From an uncultured Bacteroidales bacterium (lineage in GTDB: Bacteria; Bacteroidota; Bacteroidia; Bacteroidales; UBA932), in assembly GCA_944326305.1 (NCBI GenBank), contig CALVDL010000017.1, positions 1-64,000 of the forward strand: 64,000 nucleotides of DNA, in the 5' to 3' direction. Shown here one piece after another: positions 3,286 through 54,028 of this stretch (position 1 is the stretch's first letter; each line of letters starts with the position of its first letter). A model generated the notes under the pieces. It did not search any database, was not told where the DNA came from, and saw nothing but the letters and a program-made list of their open reading frames with translations. The translations under genes were made by a program, and so were the position numbers.

Positions 3286-3324
3286 CCAGTCCCGGAGTAG
3301 ATTAACAAATTAGCTTAGAAGAAA

Positions 3325-4104
3325 ATGAGTATCAGCATAGAAGAAATCAAAAAGCCGGAAAACATTATCTACAGGAAACCGGCTCTGCTCACAGACACCG
3401 TGATGCACTACTGCCCGGGCTGCTCCCATGGCACAGTGCACAAGATAATAGCTGAAGTAATCGGAGAGATGGGCATCCAGGACCAGACCATAGGCGTATG
3501 CCCGGTCGGCTGTTCCGTCTTTGCCTACAACTATATCGACATAGACTGGCAGGAGGCCGCACACGGACGGGCTCCGGCCCTGGCCACCGCCACCAAGAGA
3601 CTCTGCCCTGACAAATATGTGTTCACATACCAGGGTGACGGAGACCTTGCGTCTATAGGTACAGCCGAAATCATCCATGCCTGCGGACGCGGCGAAAATA
3701 TCGTCGTAATCTTCATCAACAACGGCATATACGGCATGACCGGAGGCCAGATGGCACCTACGACCCTCATCGGAATGAAGACATCGACCACCCCTTACGG
3801 GCGCGACCCGAAGCTGAACGGATTCCCGCTGGTGATAGCTGACATGCTGGCGCATCTCGACGGCACGGCATATATCACCAGGCAGTCAGTACATACGGCA
3901 CCGGCAGTGCGGAAAGCCAAGGCAGCCATACGCAAAGCGTTCGAATACAGCCAGAAAGGGATAGGACTCTCATTCGTTGAGATCGTCTCCACATGCAACT
4001 CCGGATGGAAGATGACCCCTGTAGACGCGAACAAATGGATGGTGGAGCACATGTTCGAGAAATACCCTGTCGGAGACATAAAGGATGTCCTGGCAGCCAA
4101 ATAA
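3325..4104 (+). CDS. 2-oxoacid:ferredoxin oxidoreductase beta subunit (TPP binding)
   Basis: Beta subunit (259 residues), which carries thiamine diphosphate and normally a [4Fe-4S] cluster. Visible signatures: CPGCSHG near the N-terminus and CPVGC as cluster ligands, the TPP/Mg motif GDGDLASIG continuing to FINNGIYGMTGGQ, and the PTT segment that follows in this family. It lies 39 bases after the alpha subunit and 91 before gamma, in the same direction. Together the four genes are a complete enzyme, probably used in amino-acid fermentation or in reductive formation of 2-oxoacids. Confidence 0.9.
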   Translation: MSISIEEIKKPENIIYRKPALLTDTVMHYCPGCSHGTVHKIIAEVIGEMGIQDQTIGVCPVGCSVFAYNYIDIDWQEAAHGRAPALATATKRLCPDKYVFTYQGDGDLASIGTAEIIHACGRGENIVVIFINNGIYGMTGGQMAPTTLIGMKTSTTPYGRDPKLNGFPLVIADMLAHLDGTAYITRQSVHTAPAVRKAKAAIRKAFEYSQKGIGLSFVEIVSTCNSGWKMTPVDANKWMVEHMFEKYPVGDIKDVLAAK

Positions 4105-4821: not shown

Positions 4822-5094
4822 ATGCTCGAGAATATCAGAAAAGATATCGAACGGCTGGTAGCCGCATATGAAGCGGAAAAGGAGCTGAGGATGAATCTTG
4901 AAGAAGAGCTCAGGCACTGCAAGGCGGAGAACGGGGCTTACAGGAAGCAGATCGCAGAACTATACAGACTGACAGATAACTTGAAACTGAAAAACACCCT
5001 CCTCGGGGCATCCGGCGATGCAGACGAGGCCCGGAGCAGGATTGACAGGATGATTAAAGATATCGACAGATGCATCTCATTGATGGAGAAGTAG
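4822..5094 (+). CDS. Small coiled-coil protein upstream of zapA
   Basis: A 90-residue soluble protein with no signal peptide, almost wholly alpha-helical: heptad-like leucine/isoleucine spacing through LENIRKDIERLVAAYEAEK and LEEELRHCKAENGAYRKQI predicts a long coiled coil. It ends 4 bases before zapA and shares its promoter, so the two are very likely co-expressed. Size, charge and architecture recall ZapB-like division proteins that partner with ZapA, but I see no specific sequence match, so that role is an inference from context. A second ATG at 4818 is in another frame and was not used. Confidence 0.7.
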   Translation: MLENIRKDIERLVAAYEAEKELRMNLEEELRHCKAENGAYRKQIAELYRLTDNLKLKNTLLGASGDADEARSRIDRMIKDIDRCISLMEK

Positions 5095-5684: not shown

Positions 5685-7226
5685 ATGAGTATTTTATTCT
5701 ATTTTCTCACGGCTTTCTTAGGGGCGATAATTGCTCTGGGTACATATATATATGTCCGAAAACTTACGCTCAACGGGCGCAAAGAGGAAATTATCCAGAA
5801 GGCCGAGGTAGAGGCCGAGAAAATCAAGTCCGAAAAGATCCTTCAGGCGAAAGAGAAGTTTATCCAGCTCAAAAGCGAGCACGAACAGTATATCAACGAG
5901 AAGAACAGCCAGATACGCGAGATTGAAAGCAGGCTGAAGCAGAAGGAGAACACACTGAACCAGCAGAACGCCGAACTCTCCAGAAAGAACAAGGATGCAG
6001 AGGCAATCAGGGAGAACCTGAAGAACCAGATGGAGATAGTGAACCGCAAATCAGAAGAATACGACAGGCTCCGCAACCAGGCCATCCAGCAGATAGAAAA
6101 TATCGCCGGCATGACGGCCAACGAGGCGAAAAACCAGCTGATGGAAAACATGAAAGCCGAGGCGAGATCCCAGGCGCAGTCATACATCAACGACGCGATG
6201 GACGAAGCCAGGCTCACTGCCAGCAAAGAGGCGAAACGAATCATCATCAATACAATCCAGAGAACAGCCACCGAGACCGCCATTGAAAATGCAGTGACGG
6301 TGTTCAATATCGAGAGCGACGAGATCAAGGGCCGCATCATCGGACGTGAAGGACGTAACATACGCGCACTCGAGGCTGCGACCGGAGTAGAAATCGTAGT
6401 TGATGACACTCCGGAAGCCATACTGCTGTCAGCATTCGACCCTGTCAGGAGGGAAGTCGCCAGGCTTGCGCTCCACCAGCTGGTGATAGACGGAAGGATA
6501 CATCCGGCCCGCATCGAAGAAGTCGTTGCCAAGGTACAGAAGCAGCTCGAGGACGAAATCATGGAGACGGGAAAGAGGACCTGCATCGACCTCGGCATAC
6601 ACGGGATGCACATAGAGCTTGTAAAGCTGATAGGACGAATGAAATACCGTTCATCATACGGGCAGAACCTTCTCCAGCACTCACGCGAAGTGGCGAACAT
6701 CTGTGCCACGATGGCTTCAGAGCTCGGGCTCAACCCGAAGATAGCAAAGCGTGCCGGGCTGCTGCATGACATCGGCAAGGTATCCGACGAGGATCCGGAG
6801 CTTCCACACGCAATCCTCGGAATGAAGCTGGCAGAGAAATACAAAGAGAAACCGGAGGTATGCAACGCCATCGGTGCACACCATGAAGAAATCGAAATGA
6901 CCTCAATCATCTCCCCTATCGTCATGGTAGGCGACGCAATATCAGGGGCACGTCCGGGTGCACGCCGCGAGGTGATAGAATCATACATCAAGAGGCTAAA
7001 GGACATGGAGAACATCGCCCAGTCCTACGCCGGTGTCACCAAGACATACGCCATCCAGGCCGGAAGGGAGCTGCGGGTGATTGTAGGGGCGAACCAGGTA
7101 AGCGACAGCGATGCGGAAACACTGTCAAGGGATATAGCCAAGAAAATCCAGGAGGAGATGGTATATCCGGGACAGGTAAAGATTACAGTGATACGCGAAA
7201 CAAGATCAGTTGCGTTTGCAAAATAA
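5685..7226 (+). CDS. rny: Ribonuclease Y
   Basis: RNase Y (513 residues), a membrane-anchored endoribonuclease that starts mRNA decay. Order of parts: N-terminal transmembrane helix (about residues 3-24), a long charged coiled coil (about 30-200), a KH RNA-binding domain with [15 protein letters not shown], and an HD domain with the metal-binding LLHDIGK followed by GAHHEE. Length is normal for the family (about 510-520). ATG at 5685 gives the expected membrane anchor. It is 15 bases upstream of the DsbD-like gene, so the two may share a transcript. Confidence 0.96.
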
Positions 7227-21266: not shown

Positions 21267-23396
21267 ATGACCTGCAAATCAAATAAACCGCTTCTGATTT
21301 TATTCCTGCTGGCCTGTACTGCTACAATGCATGCGAAGCCTGTAATTTTCTGCGGACATGAAGACAATGACCTCTACGGATTGATGGTGGACGAAGGCCT
21401 GGAAGTAAAACTGTTCAAGTCCCTTGACGATGCCCTGGATGCCGCTCCGAGAAATTCGGGATTGTTCGTCGCAGCAGAAGGATACCCGGAGGACAGGACA
21501 CAGATATCCGCAGAACAGTATTCCATCGCCCGGAAAAAGAAGGTGAGGATGTTCATCGAATTTCCGTCTTCAATACCGGGGATGAGCCTCCCTGACGAAT
21601 GCTACCACGGGGCGCTGGAGAGGGCGGTGGTCACTTCGGACATATTCGGCGCAGGCCTCCCGGAAATGAGTCTGCTGACTGTCAATGACTGCCATATAAT
21701 CCCCGCCGAGGCCGAAAACCCGGTAATGGTATATGCAAAGGTTGCCGGATTCGACAGGGCAGAATACGGGCTGACAGACACCGACGTATACCCTCTCCTG
21801 TTCATGCACGACAATATGACAATGGCCGCCATGTCGGCACTCTCGAACTTCAGGACCGCACGGTTCGGTCCCGGACTCAGTTGGAGACTGGTCTGGGAGA
21901 CCCTGCTGGGCTGGCTGACTGGAGAAGATGTCTCACTGGACTCATGGGAACCGGACCCGAGGCCTATGTTCAGCAGGGACGAGCCCCTGCCTGAAAACGC
22001 AAGACTTAATGCCGTGATGAAGGGAACGGAATGGCTCTACAACGCACGGTTCTTCATTCACCCATCATGGAAGCAGAAGGCAATGGAATACCAGTCGGAC
22101 ATCAACAATCCATCCGGACCGCCCGTGCCGCAGCAATGCCTGAACGGGGACGGATGCCACGGTGTGCTGGAGGGGCACCAGTCCTATATCTACCATGACG
22201 GCTCTCAGAGGTACAGGTACTGGAGACGCTGTGACGTGCAGGGGGAAGTGGCATTCCTACTCGCCGCTTCCTCTGACCTGACCGGGTCAGACAAGTACAG
22301 GCAGTGCTCCGAGAACCTCCTGGACTTCATGTTCTACGAGGCTGAATACAGGCAGGGGACACACAACGACAGGAACAGCCCGGTATACGGGCTGCTCGGA
22401 TGGGGAGACAATGCGAACTGGGTGTTCTACAGTGACGACAATGCCAGGGCCGTCCTAGGCGCGATAGGGGCTTCCGCCTTGATAGACTCCCAGAGATGGA
22501 ACACGATGATCACGGAGAACATCCTCGCGAACTTCAGGACAAGCAGCAGACAGGGGTTCCACGGGGAGAGATTGCATGAGCAGGACATAATTGACAACGG
22601 ATGGCAATTCTATGCAAACAGGGATTATACTTTCATTAACATGAATTTTGAATCATATTGCTGGGCACTTTACCTATGGCTGTATGACAAGACAGGATAC
22701 AGGCCACTCCTTGACAAAGCCAAGACTGCCATAAAGATTACAATGGAGGCTTATCCCGATAACTGGCATTTCCTGCAGGGAATACAATCTGAAAAAGCAA
22801 GGCTACTGCTTCCTCTTTCATGGCTTGTCCGAGCCGAGGATACTCCAGAACACCGCAAATGGCTGGACACCATCATATCTGACCTACTCAAGGAGCAGGA
22901 TGCGTGCGGTGCATTCAAGGAGAACCTCGGGGAAGGGACAGGGGGAAGCTTTGGCAGGACTCCATCCAATGCTGCATACGGAACCGCAGAGTCCCCGCTG
23001 AACTTCAGCAACAGGGACAAGGTGTCCGACCTGCTGTACACCAGCAACTTCATCCTCCTGGGACTGAACGAGGCGGCCCACGCAACAGGAAACCACGTGT
23101 ACCGGGACGCAGTGCAGAGGCTGGCCGACTTCATAGTCAGGATACAGGTTGACAGTGAAGACCATCCGGACATCGACGGGGCCTGGTTCAGGGCGTTCGA
23201 TTTCGGCAGGTGGGACTACTGGGCCGAAAACGCTGACATGGGATGGGGCGCCTGGAGCACACTGACCGGATGGAGCCAGTCCTGGATCGTCGGGACTCTC
23301 GCACTGATGGAGAAGGGGTCCTGCTTCTGGGATGAGACCAGGGACATGGATATGGAAAAGGATTTCAACGCAGCTTTATGGATGCTTGAACAGTAA
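21267..23396 (+). CDS. Putative glycan-active enzyme, tandem copy A (alpha/alpha-barrel type)
   Basis: A 709-residue exported protein. The N-terminal signal MTCKSNKPLLILFLLAC includes a possible lipobox (LLAC), or it may be cut after MHA; the mature chain starts near KPVIFCGHEDND. Residues about 25-200 look like a Rossmann-like, glutamine-amidotransferase-like domain. From about 240 on, repeated aromatic-rich helical hairpins (WRRCDVQGEVAFLLAASS, LYLWLYDKTGY, TSNFILLGLNEAAHATG) suggest an (alpha/alpha)6 barrel as in several glycoside hydrolase and lyase families. I do not recognise the family. It is followed 17 bases later by a nearly identical copy. Confidence 0.7.
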   Translation: MTCKSNKPLLILFLLACTATMHAKPVIFCGHEDNDLYGLMVDEGLEVKLFKSLDDALDAAPRNSGLFVAAEGYPEDRTQISAEQYSIARKKKVRMFIEFPSSIPGMSLPDECYHGALERAVVTSDIFGAGLPEMSLLTVNDCHIIPAEAENPVMVYAKVAGFDRAEYGLTDTDVYPLLFMHDNMTMAAMSALSNFRTARFGPGLSWRLVWETLLGWLTGEDVSLDSWEPDPRPMFSRDEPLPENARLNAVMKGTEWLYNARFFIHPSWKQKAMEYQSDINNPSGPPVPQQCLNGDGCHGVLEGHQSYIYHDGSQRYRYWRRCDVQGEVAFLLAASSDLTGSDKYRQCSENLLDFMFYEAEYRQGTHNDRNSPVYGLLGWGDNANWVFYSDDNARAVLGAIGASALIDSQRWNTMITENILANFRTSSRQGFHGERLHEQDIIDNGWQFYANRDYTFINMNFESYCWALYLWLYDKTGYRPLLDKAKTAIKITMEAYPDNWHFLQGIQSEKARLLLPLSWLVRAEDTPEHRKWLDTIISDLLKEQDACGAFKENLGEGTGGSFGRTPSNAAYGTAESPLNFSNRDKVSDLLYTSNFILLGLNEAAHATGNHVYRDAVQRLADFIVRIQVDSEDHPDIDGAWFRAFDFGRWDYWAENADMGWGAWSTLTGWSQSWIVGTLALMEKGSCFWDETRDMDMEKDFNAALWMLEQ

Positions 23397-25543
23397 CTTT
23401 AACCGTTTTTACTATGAATAATAAAATCATTTTATCGGTAATGTCCCTTTTCCTGATATTTCCGGCTTTAGGAATATATGCGAAACCTGTAATTTTCTGC
23501 GGTCACGAAGACAATGACCTCTACGGATTGATGGTGGACGAAGGCCTGGAAGTAAAACTGTTCAAGTCCCTTGACGATGCCCTGGATGCCGCTCCGAGAA
23601 ATTCGGGATTGTTCGTCGCAGCAGAAGGATACCCGGAGGACAGGACACAGATATCCGCAGAACAGTATTCCATCGCCCGGAAAAAGAAGGTGAGGATGTT
23701 CATCGAATTTCCGTCTTCAATACCGGGGATGAGCCTCCCTGACGAATGCTACCACGGGGCGCTGGAGAGGGCGGTGGTCACTTCGGACATATTCGGCGCA
23801 GGCCTCCCGGAAATGAGTCTGCTGACTGTCAATGACTGCCATATAATCCCCGCCGAGGCCGAAAACCCGGTAATGGTATATGCAAAGGTTGCCGGATTCG
23901 ACAGGGCAGAATACGGGCTGACAGACACCGACGTATACCCTCTCCTGTTCATGCACGACAATATGACAATGGCCGCCATGTCGGCACTCTCGAACTTCAG
24001 GACCGCACGGTTCGGTCCCGGACTCAGTTGGAGACTGGTCTGGGAGACCCTGCTGGGCTGGCTGACTGGAGAAGATGTCTCACTGGACTCATGGGAACCG
24101 GACCCGAGGCCTATGTTCAGCAGGGACGAGCCCCTGCCTGAAAACGCAAGACTTAATGCCGTGATGAAGGGAACGGAATGGCTCTACAACGCACGGTTCT
24201 TCATTCACCCATCATGGAAGCAGAAGGCAATGGAATACCAGTCGGACATCAACAATCCATCCGGACCGCCCGTGCCGCAGCAATGCCTGAACGGGGACGG
24301 ATGCCACGGTGTGCTGGAGGGGCACCAGTCCTATATCTACCATGACGGCTCTCAGAGGTACAGGTACTGGAGACGCTGTGACGTGCAGGGGGAAGTGGCA
24401 TTCCTACTCGCCGCTTCCTCTGACCTGACCGGGTCAGACAAGTACAGGCAGTGCTCCGAGAACCTCCTGGACTTCATGTTCTACGAGGCTGAATACAGGC
24501 AGGGGACACACAACGACAGGAACAGCCCGGTATACGGGCTGCTCGGATGGGGAGACAATGCGAACTGGGTGTTCTACAGTGACGACAATGCCAGGGCCGT
24601 CCTAGGCGCGATAGGGGCTTCCGCCTTGATAGACTCCCAGAGATGGAACACGATGATCACGGAGAACATCCTCGCGAACTTCAGGACAAGCAGCAGACAG
24701 GGGTTCCACGGGGAGAGATTGCATGAGCAGGACATAATTGACAACGGATGGCAATTCTATGCAAACAGGGATTATACTTTCATTAACATGAATTTTGAAT
24801 CATATTGCTGGGCACTTTACCTATGGCTGTATGACAAGACAGGATACAGGCCACTCCTTGACAAAGCCAAGACTGCCATAAAGATTACAATGGAGGCTTA
24901 TCCCGATAACTGGCATTTCCTGCAGGGAATACAATCTGAAAAAGCAAGGCTACTGCTTCCTCTTTCATGGCTTGTCCGAGCCGAGGATACTCCAGAACAC
25001 CGCAAATGGCTGGACACCATCATATCTGACCTACTCAAGGAGCAGGATGCGTGCGGTGCATTCAAGGAGAACCTCGGGGAAGGGACAGGGGGAAGCTTTG
25101 GCAGGACTCCATCCAATGCTGCATACGGAACCGCAGAGTCCCCGCTGAACTTCAGCAACAGGGACAAGGTGTCCGACCTGCTGTACACCAGCAACTTCAT
25201 CCTCCTGGGACTGAACGAGGCGGCCCACGCAACAGGAAACCACGTGTACCGGGACGCAGTGCAGAGGCTGGCCGACTTCATAGTCAGGATACAGGTTGAC
25301 AGTGAAGACCATCCGGACATCGACGGGGCCTGGTTCAGGGCGTTCGATTTCGGCAGGTGGGACTACTGGGCCGAAAACGCTGACATGGGATGGGGCGCCT
25401 GGAGCACACTGACCGGATGGAGCCAGTCCTGGATCGTCGGGACTCTCGCACTGATGGAGAAGGGGTCCTGCTTCTGGGATGAGACCAGGGACATGGATAT
25501 GGAAAAGGATTTCAACGAAGCTTTATGGATGCTTGAACAGTAA
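21360..25543 (+). repeat. Two-kilobase tandem direct repeat
   Basis: Bases 21360-23397 and 23507-25544 are the same sequence offset by 2147 bases, with one substitution noted (C at 23371, A at 25518). The repeats stop abruptly at the signal-peptide codons on the left and just past the stop codon on the right. The different flanks show that this is not one gene assembled twice. Confidence 0.92.
23414..25543 (+). CDS. Putative glycan-active enzyme, tandem copy B
   Basis: A 709-residue protein with the same mature sequence as copy A apart from one residue near the C-terminus (Glu in place of Ala, from one base at 25518). Its signal peptide is unrelated (MNNKIILSVMSLFLIFPALG, ending IYA before KP) and looks like a signal-peptidase-I substrate with no lipobox. 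From 23507 onward the DNA matches copy A (from 21360) over about 2 kb with only that single difference seen. Domain reading as for copy A. The pair suggests one enzyme delivered to two cell locations, or a very recent duplication or conversion. Confidence 0.72.
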   Translation: MNNKIILSVMSLFLIFPALGIYAKPVIFCGHEDNDLYGLMVDEGLEVKLFKSLDDALDAAPRNSGLFVAAEGYPEDRTQISAEQYSIARKKKVRMFIEFPSSIPGMSLPDECYHGALERAVVTSDIFGAGLPEMSLLTVNDCHIIPAEAENPVMVYAKVAGFDRAEYGLTDTDVYPLLFMHDNMTMAAMSALSNFRTARFGPGLSWRLVWETLLGWLTGEDVSLDSWEPDPRPMFSRDEPLPENARLNAVMKGTEWLYNARFFIHPSWKQKAMEYQSDINNPSGPPVPQQCLNGDGCHGVLEGHQSYIYHDGSQRYRYWRRCDVQGEVAFLLAASSDLTGSDKYRQCSENLLDFMFYEAEYRQGTHNDRNSPVYGLLGWGDNANWVFYSDDNARAVLGAIGASALIDSQRWNTMITENILANFRTSSRQGFHGERLHEQDIIDNGWQFYANRDYTFINMNFESYCWALYLWLYDKTGYRPLLDKAKTAIKITMEAYPDNWHFLQGIQSEKARLLLPLSWLVRAEDTPEHRKWLDTIISDLLKEQDACGAFKENLGEGTGGSFGRTPSNAAYGTAESPLNFSNRDKVSDLLYTSNFILLGLNEAAHATGNHVYRDAVQRLADFIVRIQVDSEDHPDIDGAWFRAFDFGRWDYWAENADMGWGAWSTLTGWSQSWIVGTLALMEKGSCFWDETRDMDMEKDFNEALWMLEQ

Positions 25544-38884: not shown

Positions 38885-38948
38885 AATCAACGTCAGTCCG
38901 ACGAATTAAATTGTAGTTTATTATCCTAAAAGCCAATACTTTCTTTTA

Positions 38949-39000
38949 TGACCGGAATACGTCATACTGACGTTAGGGATTTCCTGCAGAAATCCGGTCA
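38949..39000. repeat. Nested inverted repeat (three-way-junction-like element)
   Basis: Outer arms TGACCGGA (38949-38956) and TCCGGTCA (38993-39000) enclose two smaller perfect or near-perfect hairpins, ACGTCA-TAC-TGACGT and GGATTTC-CTGCA-GAAATCC. The 254-base gap between the dehydrogenase and serine palmitoyltransferase holds this element and, at 39001-39144, a GC-rich stretch with further hairpins such as GGCCC-TGAC-GGGCC and GGCTTCCC-TCC-CGGAAGCC-like pairs. No gene is supported there. Confidence 0.6.
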
Positions 39001-52250: not shown

Positions 52251-52282
52251 TTTGACAGATTCTGAAAATTTATGTAATTTCG
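52251..52282 (+). promoter_or_regulatory. Probable promoter of the DUF4143 gene, overlapping the left palindrome
   Basis: TTTG at 52251-52254, a 20-base spacer and TAATTTCG at 52275-52282 (one mismatch from TAnnTTTG). The -7 box lies inside the left palindromic repeat, so a protein bound there would block transcription. Confidence 0.55.
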
Positions 52283-52309
52283 GAATTGAATTCCAATTTT
52301 GCATAAAAT
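52261..52309. repeat. Left palindromic direct repeat of the DUF4143 unit
   Basis: Opens TCTGAAAATTTATG and ends GCATAAAAT, with centre GGAATTGAATTCC. It aligns with the repeat at 53450 over its whole length with two substitutions and one short indel. The outer arms (ATTTATG / CATAAAAT) are inverted repeats with one mismatch. The final A-T of the repeat is the first two bases of the start codon. Confidence 0.85.
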
Positions 52310-53465
52310 GGATTATATAACCAGAAAAATAGAGCAGACTATTTCTGAAGCAGCGAAATATTTTCCTGTGATTGCAGTCACAGGCCCCCGGCAATCCGGG
52401 AAAAGTACACTGCTCAGCCATCTTTTCCCTGAGGCTGTCAAGTTTTCTCTAAAGGATGTAAATGTCAGGAGTTTTGCAGAAAGTGACCCTATTGCTTTCC
52501 TGAATCAGACAGACAAAGCACTTTTTATAGACGAGGTCCAGAAAGTGCCGGTGCTGCTGGAATACATCCAGGGTATTGCCGACAATCACCCTGACCGGAA
52601 ATTTTTCCTGTCAGGCAGTTCGAATTTCGAACTTATGAAGTCCGTTTCAGAATCCCTTGCAGGAAGAGCAGGTGTTTATGAACTGCTGCCGATGTCATAC
52701 CCGGAAATATCAGCGCACGCTTCGGAGAAAGACCTGGATACTTTTCTGTATGACGGTCTGTTTCCAGCGATATATTCAGGTAAAAATATCGCCAGGCTGT
52801 TTTATCCGTCGTACGTAAAGACATATATTGAAAAGGATATCCGGGACCTTATGCATATCAAGGACACCATGCAGTTCCTCCGTTTCCTGAAATTGTGTGC
52901 AGCAAGGATAGGTTCGGTATTCAACGCAAACGAATTGTCCGGCGAAGTGGGTGTCGACAGCAAGACCATAGCATCATGGCTATCCGTCCTGAGCGCTTCC
53001 TATATCATATATCTGCTGCCCCCATACTATGAAAACATTTCAAAACGTCTTGTAAAGCGTCCCAAACTGTATTTTACAGATCCCGGACTGGCATGCTGCA
53101 TGCTCGATATCGAAAGTCCTGCGCAATTGTCCAAAGACAAGATGAGAGGAAATATTTTCGAAAATTATGTCGTCATGGAAGCCGTAAAACACAGGATGAA
53201 CAAGGGAATGGAAGGCGGAGTGTACTTTTACAGGGACAGCAATGGCAACGAAGTTGATCTTCTTATCAAGGAAGAAGGTGAGCTGAAGGCATTTGAAATA
53301 AAGTCTTCAATGACATACATTCCGGAATTCGGAAAGACCCTGAAGAAACTGCCGGAGTGGATTACGACACCAGTCGTAAAAAAAGCAATAATATATAACG
53401 GGGATTTCGAAAATACGGCAGGCGATATTGAAATAATAAATTACAGAAATCTGAATTTTATGTAA
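52308..53465 (+). CDS. AAA ATPase with DUF4143 domain
   Basis: A 385-residue cytoplasmic ATPase of the AAA_14/DUF4143 group (COG1373-like). The ATG at 52308 is preferred over the TTG three codons earlier. Walker A is GPRQSGKS (residues 26-33), Walker B ALFIDEVQKV (Asp75-Glu76), followed by FFLSGSSN. The C-terminal DUF4143 part has NEVDLLI and AFEIKSS, spaced like the acidic and ExK elements of a PD-(D/E)XK nuclease fold. The family is multi-copy in Bacteroidota and its job is unclear. The gene has lower GC than its neighbours. It is exactly bracketed by palindromic repeats, with the stop codon inside the right one. Confidence 0.88.
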   Translation: MDYITRKIEQTISEAAKYFPVIAVTGPRQSGKSTLLSHLFPEAVKFSLKDVNVRSFAESDPIAFLNQTDKALFIDEVQKVPVLLEYIQGIADNHPDRKFFLSGSSNFELMKSVSESLAGRAGVYELLPMSYPEISAHASEKDLDTFLYDGLFPAIYSGKNIARLFYPSYVKTYIEKDIRDLMHIKDTMQFLRFLKLCAARIGSVFNANELSGEVGVDSKTIASWLSVLSASYIIYLLPPYYENISKRLVKRPKLYFTDPGLACCMLDIESPAQLSKDKMRGNIFENYVVMEAVKHRMNKGMEGGVYFYRDSNGNEVDLLIKEEGELKAFEIKSSMTYIPEFGKTLKKLPEWITTPVVKKAIIYNGDFENTAGDIEIINYRNLNFM

Positions 53466-53502
53466 TTTCGGAGTTCAATTCCAATTTTGCATAAAATTCA
53501 GA
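53450..53502. repeat. Right palindromic direct repeat of the DUF4143 unit
   Basis: A 53-base palindrome with perfect 13-base arms TCTGAATTTTATG (53450-53462) and CATAAAATTCAGA (53490-53502). The centre is close to GGAGTTCAATTCC. It shares over 40 bases in direct orientation with the repeat at 52261. The DUF4143 stop codon (53463-53465) is inside it. Confidence 0.88.
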
Positions 53503-53523
53503 TAAAAGGTTAAATAATCCGAT

Positions 53524-53566
53524 AAAAAAAACAAATAGAGCAATGCCGCTCTATTTGTTTTTTTTA
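53524..53566. terminator. Bidirectional terminator between DUF4143 gene and ndk
   Basis: AAAAAACAAATAGAGC (53526-53541) pairs with GCTCTATTTGTTTTTT (53548-53563) around a 6-base loop. A runs and T runs on both sides allow termination in both directions. The ndk stop codon abuts it. Confidence 0.9.
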
Positions 53567-54028
53567 TTTCTCGTCCGGAGCGTAAAGATACTGGTTCAGC
53601 GGCGAAGGATACTCGCAGTAGTCCTCCGGGGAGAAGAACCTGTCAAGCTCTATCCTGGCGTTCTCCGGCGAGTCGGATGTATGAACGATATTCTCCTGGG
53701 CACTCAGGGCGTAGTCGCCGCGTATGGTGCCAGGGGCGGCCTTGCGGGCGTTGGTGGCACCTGCCATCTCGCGCACGACCTTCACGGCTTCGAAGCCTTC
53801 CCAGCAGCACAGGATCACAGGAGCGGCCATCATGCCGCTGCACAGCCACGGGAAGAACGGCTTGTCCTTCAGATGGGCATAATGCACGTCAAGGGTAGCC
53901 TGGTCAAGCTGCTTCATCTTCATGGCCACCAGCTTCAGCCCTCTTTTCTCGAAACGGGAGATTACCTCGCCTACCAGCCCGCGCTGGAGAGTTCCCGGTT
54001 TCAGTATTACCAATGTCCTTTCCATCAT
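53564..54028 (-). CDS. ndk: Nucleoside diphosphate kinase
   Basis: Ndk (154 residues) equilibrates nucleoside di- and triphosphates through a phosphohistidine. It opens ERTLVILKPGTLQRGLVGEV. The catalytic His is in NIVHTSDSPENA (usual NxxHGSDS, Gly replaced by Thr here). Two Met codons stand in a row; the second (54025) may be the true start. Length is near normal (about 140-155). Monocistronic, with a strong terminator at its end. Confidence 0.95.
   Translation of the reverse strand: MMERTLVILKPGTLQRGLVGEVISRFEKRGLKLVAMKMKQLDQATLDVHYAHLKDKPFFPWLCSGMMAAPVILCCWEGFEAVKVVREMAGATNARKAAPGTIRGDYALSAQENIVHTSDSPENARIELDRFFSPEDYCEYPSPLNQYLYAPDEK

What the first reader, a model, noticed from the sequence alone, without database searches (positions are those of the whole stretch)
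52261..53502. DUF4143 ATPase gene exactly bracketed by palindromic direct repeats
Seen: a roughly 49-53 base palindromic sequence occurs on both sides of one gene, in direct orientation, with only two substitutions and one small indel. The left copy ends in the start codon (GCATAAAAT then G) and the right copy contains the stop codon (TTTTATG-TAA). The right copy has perfect 13-base arms. No other gene in the window has this. Family knowledge: AAA/DUF4143 genes are numerous and scattered in Bacteroidota and their C-terminal part looks nuclease-like. Inference: repeat plus ORF may be a minimal mobile unit that inserts at a palindrome, or the ATPase may bind the palindromes for autoregulation, since the -7 box lies in the left one.
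Basis: partly seen in the sequence, partly recalled or inferred. Interest (0 to 1): 0.78.

Follow-up and report, generated by a model that had tools for sequence, protein, structure and literature searches.

The report
Palindrome-bracketed ATPase-nuclease gene that comes and goes
A single ATPase-nuclease gene in a gut bacterium (Candidatus Cryptobacteroides) sits between two near-identical copies of its own promoter palindrome; in related species the gene is missing exactly between them, leaving one palindrome, and the same palindrome precedes most relatives of this very common, untested anti-phage candidate, so it gives a concrete handle on how the gene is controlled and moved.

Summary
A 44-nt palindrome (P) lies at 52266-52309 and 53454-53497 (41/44 identical, direct orientation, 1188 bp apart) around one AAA_14/DUF4143 gene, and nowhere else in the genome. 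Of 400 Cryptobacteroides genomes, 38 hold P (reversed control: 0). Six carry P-gene-P at three loci. Three matched species (G053, G078, G181) have matching flanks joined at a single P with the gene missing. Relatives at two of these loci lack P altogether (G326, G230, G041, G110 and others; G320), so P came with the gene and is not a pre-existing target. P-only sites keep the gene's promoter, so they look like gene-loss scars made by P x P exchange. The left P overlaps the -7 box and is nearly invariant before 70 of 82 homologues over 50% identity, so it is the family's own cis-site. The protein has an AAA+ core, a winged-helix region and an invariant PD-(D/E)XK active site, and matches PDC-S01, an untested phage-defence candidate. 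Best reading: a horizontally moving, probably self-regulating ATPase-nuclease gene whose second P allows clean gain and loss. Whether the protein itself recombines P is unproven. Relative to known PDC-S01, this is a new variant.

The parts
52251..52254 (+). -33 box TTTG of the gene's promoter
   Evidence: Sequence; 20 nt before the -7 box. Aligned TTG is present upstream in all double-P and related copies and in the three P-only sites. The consensus is Bacteroidota knowledge, not tested.
52266..52309 (+). Left palindrome P (core 52270-52306), overlapping the -7 box (TAATTTCG, 52275-52282), leader and start codon
   Evidence: conserved before 70 of 82 homologues.
52308..53465 (+). AAA_14/DUF4143 gene, 385 aa: AAA+ ATPase (res. 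~20-134), winged-helix region (~187-240), PD-(D/E)XK nuclease domain (E285, D317, E330-x-K332)
   Evidence: Pfam, PADLOC PDC-S01 E 6.7e-93, invariant columns, AlphaFold2 pLDDT 92, fold matches.
53454..53497 (+). Right palindrome P (core 53458-53494), containing the stop codon; extended hairpin 53449-53503
   Evidence: second P at the same 1188/1189 spacing in G075, G029, G068, G236, G331.
53522..53567 (.). Separate perfect 20-bp hairpin with A/T runs: likely shared terminator between this gene and convergent ndk; not part of the unit
   Evidence: Inverted repeat I3.

Best explanation
The gene is a horizontally moving, single-gene AAA+/PD-(D/E)XK unit of the PDC-S01 kind that travels with its own promoter palindrome P. 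Left P is a dyad over the -7 box and leader, most likely bound by the encoded winged-helix ATPase (autoregulation). In this clade a second P sits at the 3' end, so exchange between the two P copies removes the gene exactly and leaves one P; the same exchange in reverse could restore it. Shown: the bracket, its recurrence at three loci, gene-less alleles with one P, P-less relatives, conservation of P. Inferred: that the protein binds P; that P x P exchange and not some other event made the gene-less alleles; any role in phage defence.
For: P-gene-P in six genomes at three loci. Homology between copies at unrelated loci ends at the P edges: G236/G331 from -38 to +37 beyond the gene, G000/G236 from -43 to +34. 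Three filled/gene-less pairs joined at one P: G029/G053, G000-G075/G078, G236/G181. In G029 and G068 the right half of the right P is identical to that of gene-less G053, while the left P carries the gene-side version. P-less relatives at both loci. G029 and G068 differ by 1.4% inside P-gene-P but 5-6% around it, dS 0.04 against 0.31 for ndk: recent transfer or reinsertion. Left P in 70 of 82 homologues, 1.48 against 0.41 bits per position in the adjacent upstream sequence. Catalytic residues invariant down to 30% identity.
Against: Only 7 of about 80 homologues have a right P; most copies move with the left P alone. Nothing shows the protein binds P. All relatives compared are draft or metagenome assemblies and several contigs end near P, so a P-only allele could in principle be an assembly shortcut; G053's lies deep inside a 132-kb contig and no copy of the gene is found elsewhere in G053, G078 or G181. 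The 1.48-bit figure is somewhat inflated because P was located by pattern; the control was not. Low divergence also occurs elsewhere between G029 and G068 (3300-3900), so ordinary recombination between these species is common.
Confidence: 0.58

Rival explanations
1. The ATPase-nuclease is itself a recombinase or structure-specific nuclease that cuts P (perhaps extruded as a cruciform), excises the 1188-bp unit and inserts it into P sites: a one-protein mobile element.
For: Clean P-to-P units at three loci; gene-less alleles with one P; the nuclease fold resembles Card1/Can2, McrC and archaeal Holliday-junction resolvase 1ob8, and the AAA+ core resembles RuvB and Cdc6/Orc1 among others; Ca. Equicola L201 has P-gene-P followed by a truncated second copy start, as if a copy had gone in at a resident P.
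Against: No P at the ancestral loci; most homologues move without a right P; no known transposase or recombinase domain in the protein; 44-bp repeats can recombine without a dedicated enzyme.
Confidence: 0.2
2. P is only an autoregulatory operator or leader hairpin. The right P is a by-product of local duplication, and gene loss is ordinary RecA-type or slippage deletion between direct repeats, of no functional meaning.
For: Left P overlaps -7 box and leader in nearly all homologues while right P is rare; distant DUF4143 subfamilies carry their own promoter dyads; L201 looks like a decayed tandem copy; P-only sites keep the promoter.
Against: Right P occurs on both sides of the deepest split of the clade (G000 and G236, dS about 1.9) with few changes, and the unit with both P copies lies at three unrelated loci, more than a chance by-product predicts.
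Confidence: 0.2
3. Right P is a 3' RNA hairpin (terminator or stability element) of the gene.
For: Strong RNA hairpin (-23 kcal/mol) spanning the stop codon, with arms lengthened by flanking bases; one compensatory A/T to G/C change between G000 and G068.
Against: No U-run follows it, a separate terminator hairpin lies about 25 nt on, and most homologues lack it.
Confidence: 0.05

Closest known systems
PDC-S01 (phage defence candidate; PADLOC models PDLC04786-04792)
   Same: Whole-length match, E 6.7e-93; ATPase fused to a PD-(D/E)XK domain, single gene, very common, much horizontal transfer (PMC12988326).
   Different: Defence activity of PDC-S01 is untested as far as the papers read say; none of the passages found mentions a promoter palindrome or palindrome-bracketed gene-loss alleles.
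Archaeal Walker-type ATPases 2qen (Pyrococcus abyssi) and 2fna (Sulfolobus solfataricus SSO1545)
   Same: Best structural matches, Z 15.8 and 15.1 over about 248 residues: AAA+ core plus following region.
   Different: The match stops near residue 267; the nuclease domain lies outside it.
Elements bounded by palindromes or REPs, such as RAYT/REP and IS200/IS605 (from memory)
   Same: Palindromes near the ends of a one-gene unit; solo palindromes left behind.
   Different: No HUH/Y1 transposase; DUF4143 is unrelated; P is not a high-copy repeat (2 copies in this genome).
Site-specific integrative elements with att direct repeats (from memory)
   Same: Direct repeats at both ends and a single repeat at the gene-less site.
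   Different: No integrase; pristine loci lack the repeat.

Membership tests
AAA_14/DUF4143 (COG1373-like) ATPases | AAA_14 and DUF4143 domains above curated cut-offs | tested here: met
   95.9 against 27 bits and 166.6 against 28.1 bits.
PDC-S01 | Full-length match to the PADLOC model | tested here: met
   PDLC04790, residues 1-368 on model 8-402 of 422, E 6.7e-93.
PDC-S01 | Protects against phage | not testable with these tools
   Needs an infection assay; validation is described as pending for most such candidates (PMC12988326).
PD-(D/E)XK nuclease | E...D...E-x-K active site, conserved | tested here: met
   E285, D317, E330, K332 invariant in 30 sequences.
PD-(D/E)XK nuclease | PD-(D/E)XK fold | tested here: inconclusive
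   Domain model pLDDT 83.5; best matches are PD-(D/E)XK nucleases Can2, Card1, McrC and Hje, but Foldseek E only 1.5e-3 or weaker.
Site-specific mobile element inserting at a palindrome | Gene-less allele keeps one repeat | tested here: met
   G053, G078, G181.
Site-specific mobile element inserting at a palindrome | Target palindrome present before insertion | tested here: not met
   P-less relatives at the G236 locus and at rlu-ndk.
Site-specific mobile element inserting at a palindrome | Encoded recombinase acts on the repeat | not testable with these tools
   Needs biochemistry.
Autoregulated gene with operator dyad | Conserved dyad overlapping the promoter | tested here: met
   70 of 82 homologues; outer pairs mostly kept, A-T to G-C change on both sides at pair 3/35 in five.
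Autoregulated gene with operator dyad | Protein binds the dyad and changes transcription | not testable with these tools
   Needs binding and reporter assays.

The most novel reading that the evidence does not exclude
An AAA+/PD-(D/E)XK ATPase of one of the most widespread unexplained prokaryotic gene families is a one-protein mobile element: it recognises a cruciform-capable palindrome that is both its operator and its recombination site, and uses it to leave and re-enter genomes.
Probability: 0.16. Interest if true: 0.87.

Novelty: new variant of a known kind. Interest (0 to 1): 0.6.

Why it matters
DUF4143/PDC-S01 ATPases are among the most numerous putative defence genes in bacteria and archaea, yet no activity, substrate or recognition site was found for them here. 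A conserved promoter palindrome, present in 70 of 82 homologues and bracketing the gene in one clade, is a concrete candidate DNA ligand, and natural filled, gene-less and pristine alleles allow regulation, excision and insertion to be tested directly.

Tried and rejected
A first P search was mis-spaced by one base and missed even the window; its zeros are ignored. Search for a bracket around the five other DUF4143 genes of the genome: none. P as a host REP family: rejected, two copies in the genome and nearly all genus copies sit by a DUF4143 gene or remnant. Pre-existing palindromic target: rejected for two loci. Known RNA: no Rfam match near a gathering score. Phage origin: no PHROG match; the few relatives in phage records are at most 57% identical, in unannotated faecal contigs. 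Sequence search of the PDB: no match. Literature: DUF4143, COG1373, PF13635 and DUF234 gave nothing on palindromes. The idea that the 91-bp TTCGTCGAACTGACGTTA repeat is the solo palindrome of another DUF4143 subfamily was dropped: it precedes many unrelated genes.

Full report
OBSERVATION. A 44-nt palindrome lies at 52266-52309 and again, in direct orientation and 1188 bp on, at 53454-53497, with 41 of 44 bases identical. The left copy ends at the ATG of a 385-aa gene; the right copy contains its stop codon. The pattern occurs nowhere else in the 64 kb or in the 2.78-Mb genome. A scan for direct pairs of at least 38/44 within 5 kb gives this pair and one inside a tandem gene duplication.

THE GENE. 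The protein is AAA_14 + DUF4143 and a full-length match to PADLOC's PDC-S01 (E 6.7e-93), described as an ATPase fused to a PD-(D/E)XK domain and one of the most common candidate defences, still largely unvalidated (PMC12988326). Walker A, the DE of Walker B and the nuclease residues E285, D317, E330 and K332 are invariant in 30 homologues down to 30% identity. An AlphaFold2 model (pLDDT 92) matches the archaeal ATPases 2qen and 2fna (Z 15-16), and less specifically RuvB and Cdc6/Orc1. The C-terminal domain modelled alone matches PD-(D/E)XK nucleases (Can2, Card1, McrC, Hje), with modest scores.

P IN THE GENUS. The window lies in Candidatus Cryptobacteroides by its nearest named relatives. Of 400 genomes, 38 hold P (reversed control 0), at 47 sites, nearly all beside a DUF4143 gene or a remnant of one. 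Two P copies at 1188 or 1189 bp around the gene occur in G000, G075, G029 and G068 at the rlu-ndk locus and in G236 and G331 at two other loci. Between loci, homology stops at the P edges: G236/G331 from -38 to +37 past the gene, G000/G236 from -43 to +34.

GENE-LESS AND PRISTINE ALLELES. Three species carry matching flanks joined at one P without the gene: G053 (against G029), G078 (against G000/G075) and G181 (against G236). None has the gene elsewhere at E 1e-40. In G029 and G068 the right half of the right P equals that of G053's single P, while the left P carries the gene-side version: the pattern of a conservative exchange inside P. Other relatives have no P. At the G236 locus six genomes have the two flanking genes close together with no P (G326, G230, G041, G110, G075, G068; G068's neighbourhood is rearranged by another ATPase gene). 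At rlu-ndk, G320's two genes abut. G380 has lost P but keeps the left flank. The P-only alleles keep a promoter-like left flank aligned to that of the genes. So P arrived with the gene, and P-only alleles are most simply scars of gene loss.

MOVEMENT. G029 and G068 genes differ by dS 0.04 while their ndk genes differ by 0.31; divergence is 1.4% inside P-gene-P and 5-6% outside. Single-P copies also move: G349/G326 (98.8%) and G301/G314 (97.7%) share 1.24-1.28 kb and then differ, although G301 and G314 may share a wider neighbourhood and the G349 and G326 contigs are short. The right P is therefore not needed for horizontal spread. In Ca. Equicola L201 a second P follows the gene and leads into a truncated copy start, suggesting a tandem copy.

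P AS A CIS-SITE. Among 82 homologues over 50% identity, 70 have P upstream (1.48 bits per position against 0.41 in the neighbouring sequence; P was found by pattern, so the first figure is somewhat inflated). The left half holds the -7 box (TAnnTTTG), which would explain why one position is never paired. Five homologues change the third pair from A-T to G-C on both sides. More distant DUF4143 subfamilies have other dyads at the same place (by eye). The likeliest role is an operator bound by the protein's own winged-helix region. This is inferred.

VERDICT. A real and informative arrangement: a common, uncharacterised ATPase-nuclease gene with a conserved promoter palindrome that, in one clade, brackets the gene and allows its exact loss. 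Whether the protein catalyses the exchange is open, and the metagenome origin of the relatives is the main technical caveat.

Noticed in passing
window 38886-38976 and about 77 places in the own genome (L289-L318): A roughly 91-bp repeat with inverted ends (TAACGTCAGTNYGACGAAT...TTCGTCGRACTGACGTTA), mostly 0-60 nt upstream of start codons of unrelated genes: looks like a promoter- or leader-carrying MITE.
   Followed up: partly
window 21267-23396 and 23414-25543: Tandem, almost identical 709-aa genes that differ mainly in the signal peptide.
   Followed up: no
L120/L048 (G016:C1 about 236.7 kb): Internal-deletion derivative: P plus the first codons fused to the last 26 codons of a DUF4143 gene.
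   Followed up: partly
L006 (own genome C23 about 19 kb), downstream of the DUF4143 gene: Relic of another subfamily's promoter palindrome and start codons (GTGTAATTTTGCGG...CTGCACAATTTTATGGATACC) just after a different DUF4143 gene.
   Followed up: no
L223 (about 4888-4920 and 6165-6205) and L169/L173: Other homologues bracketed by short direct repeats (30 and 21 nt) outside or beside P.
   Followed up: no
L111 (G328:C100): Two P copies 138 nt apart upstream of one intact gene.
   Followed up: no
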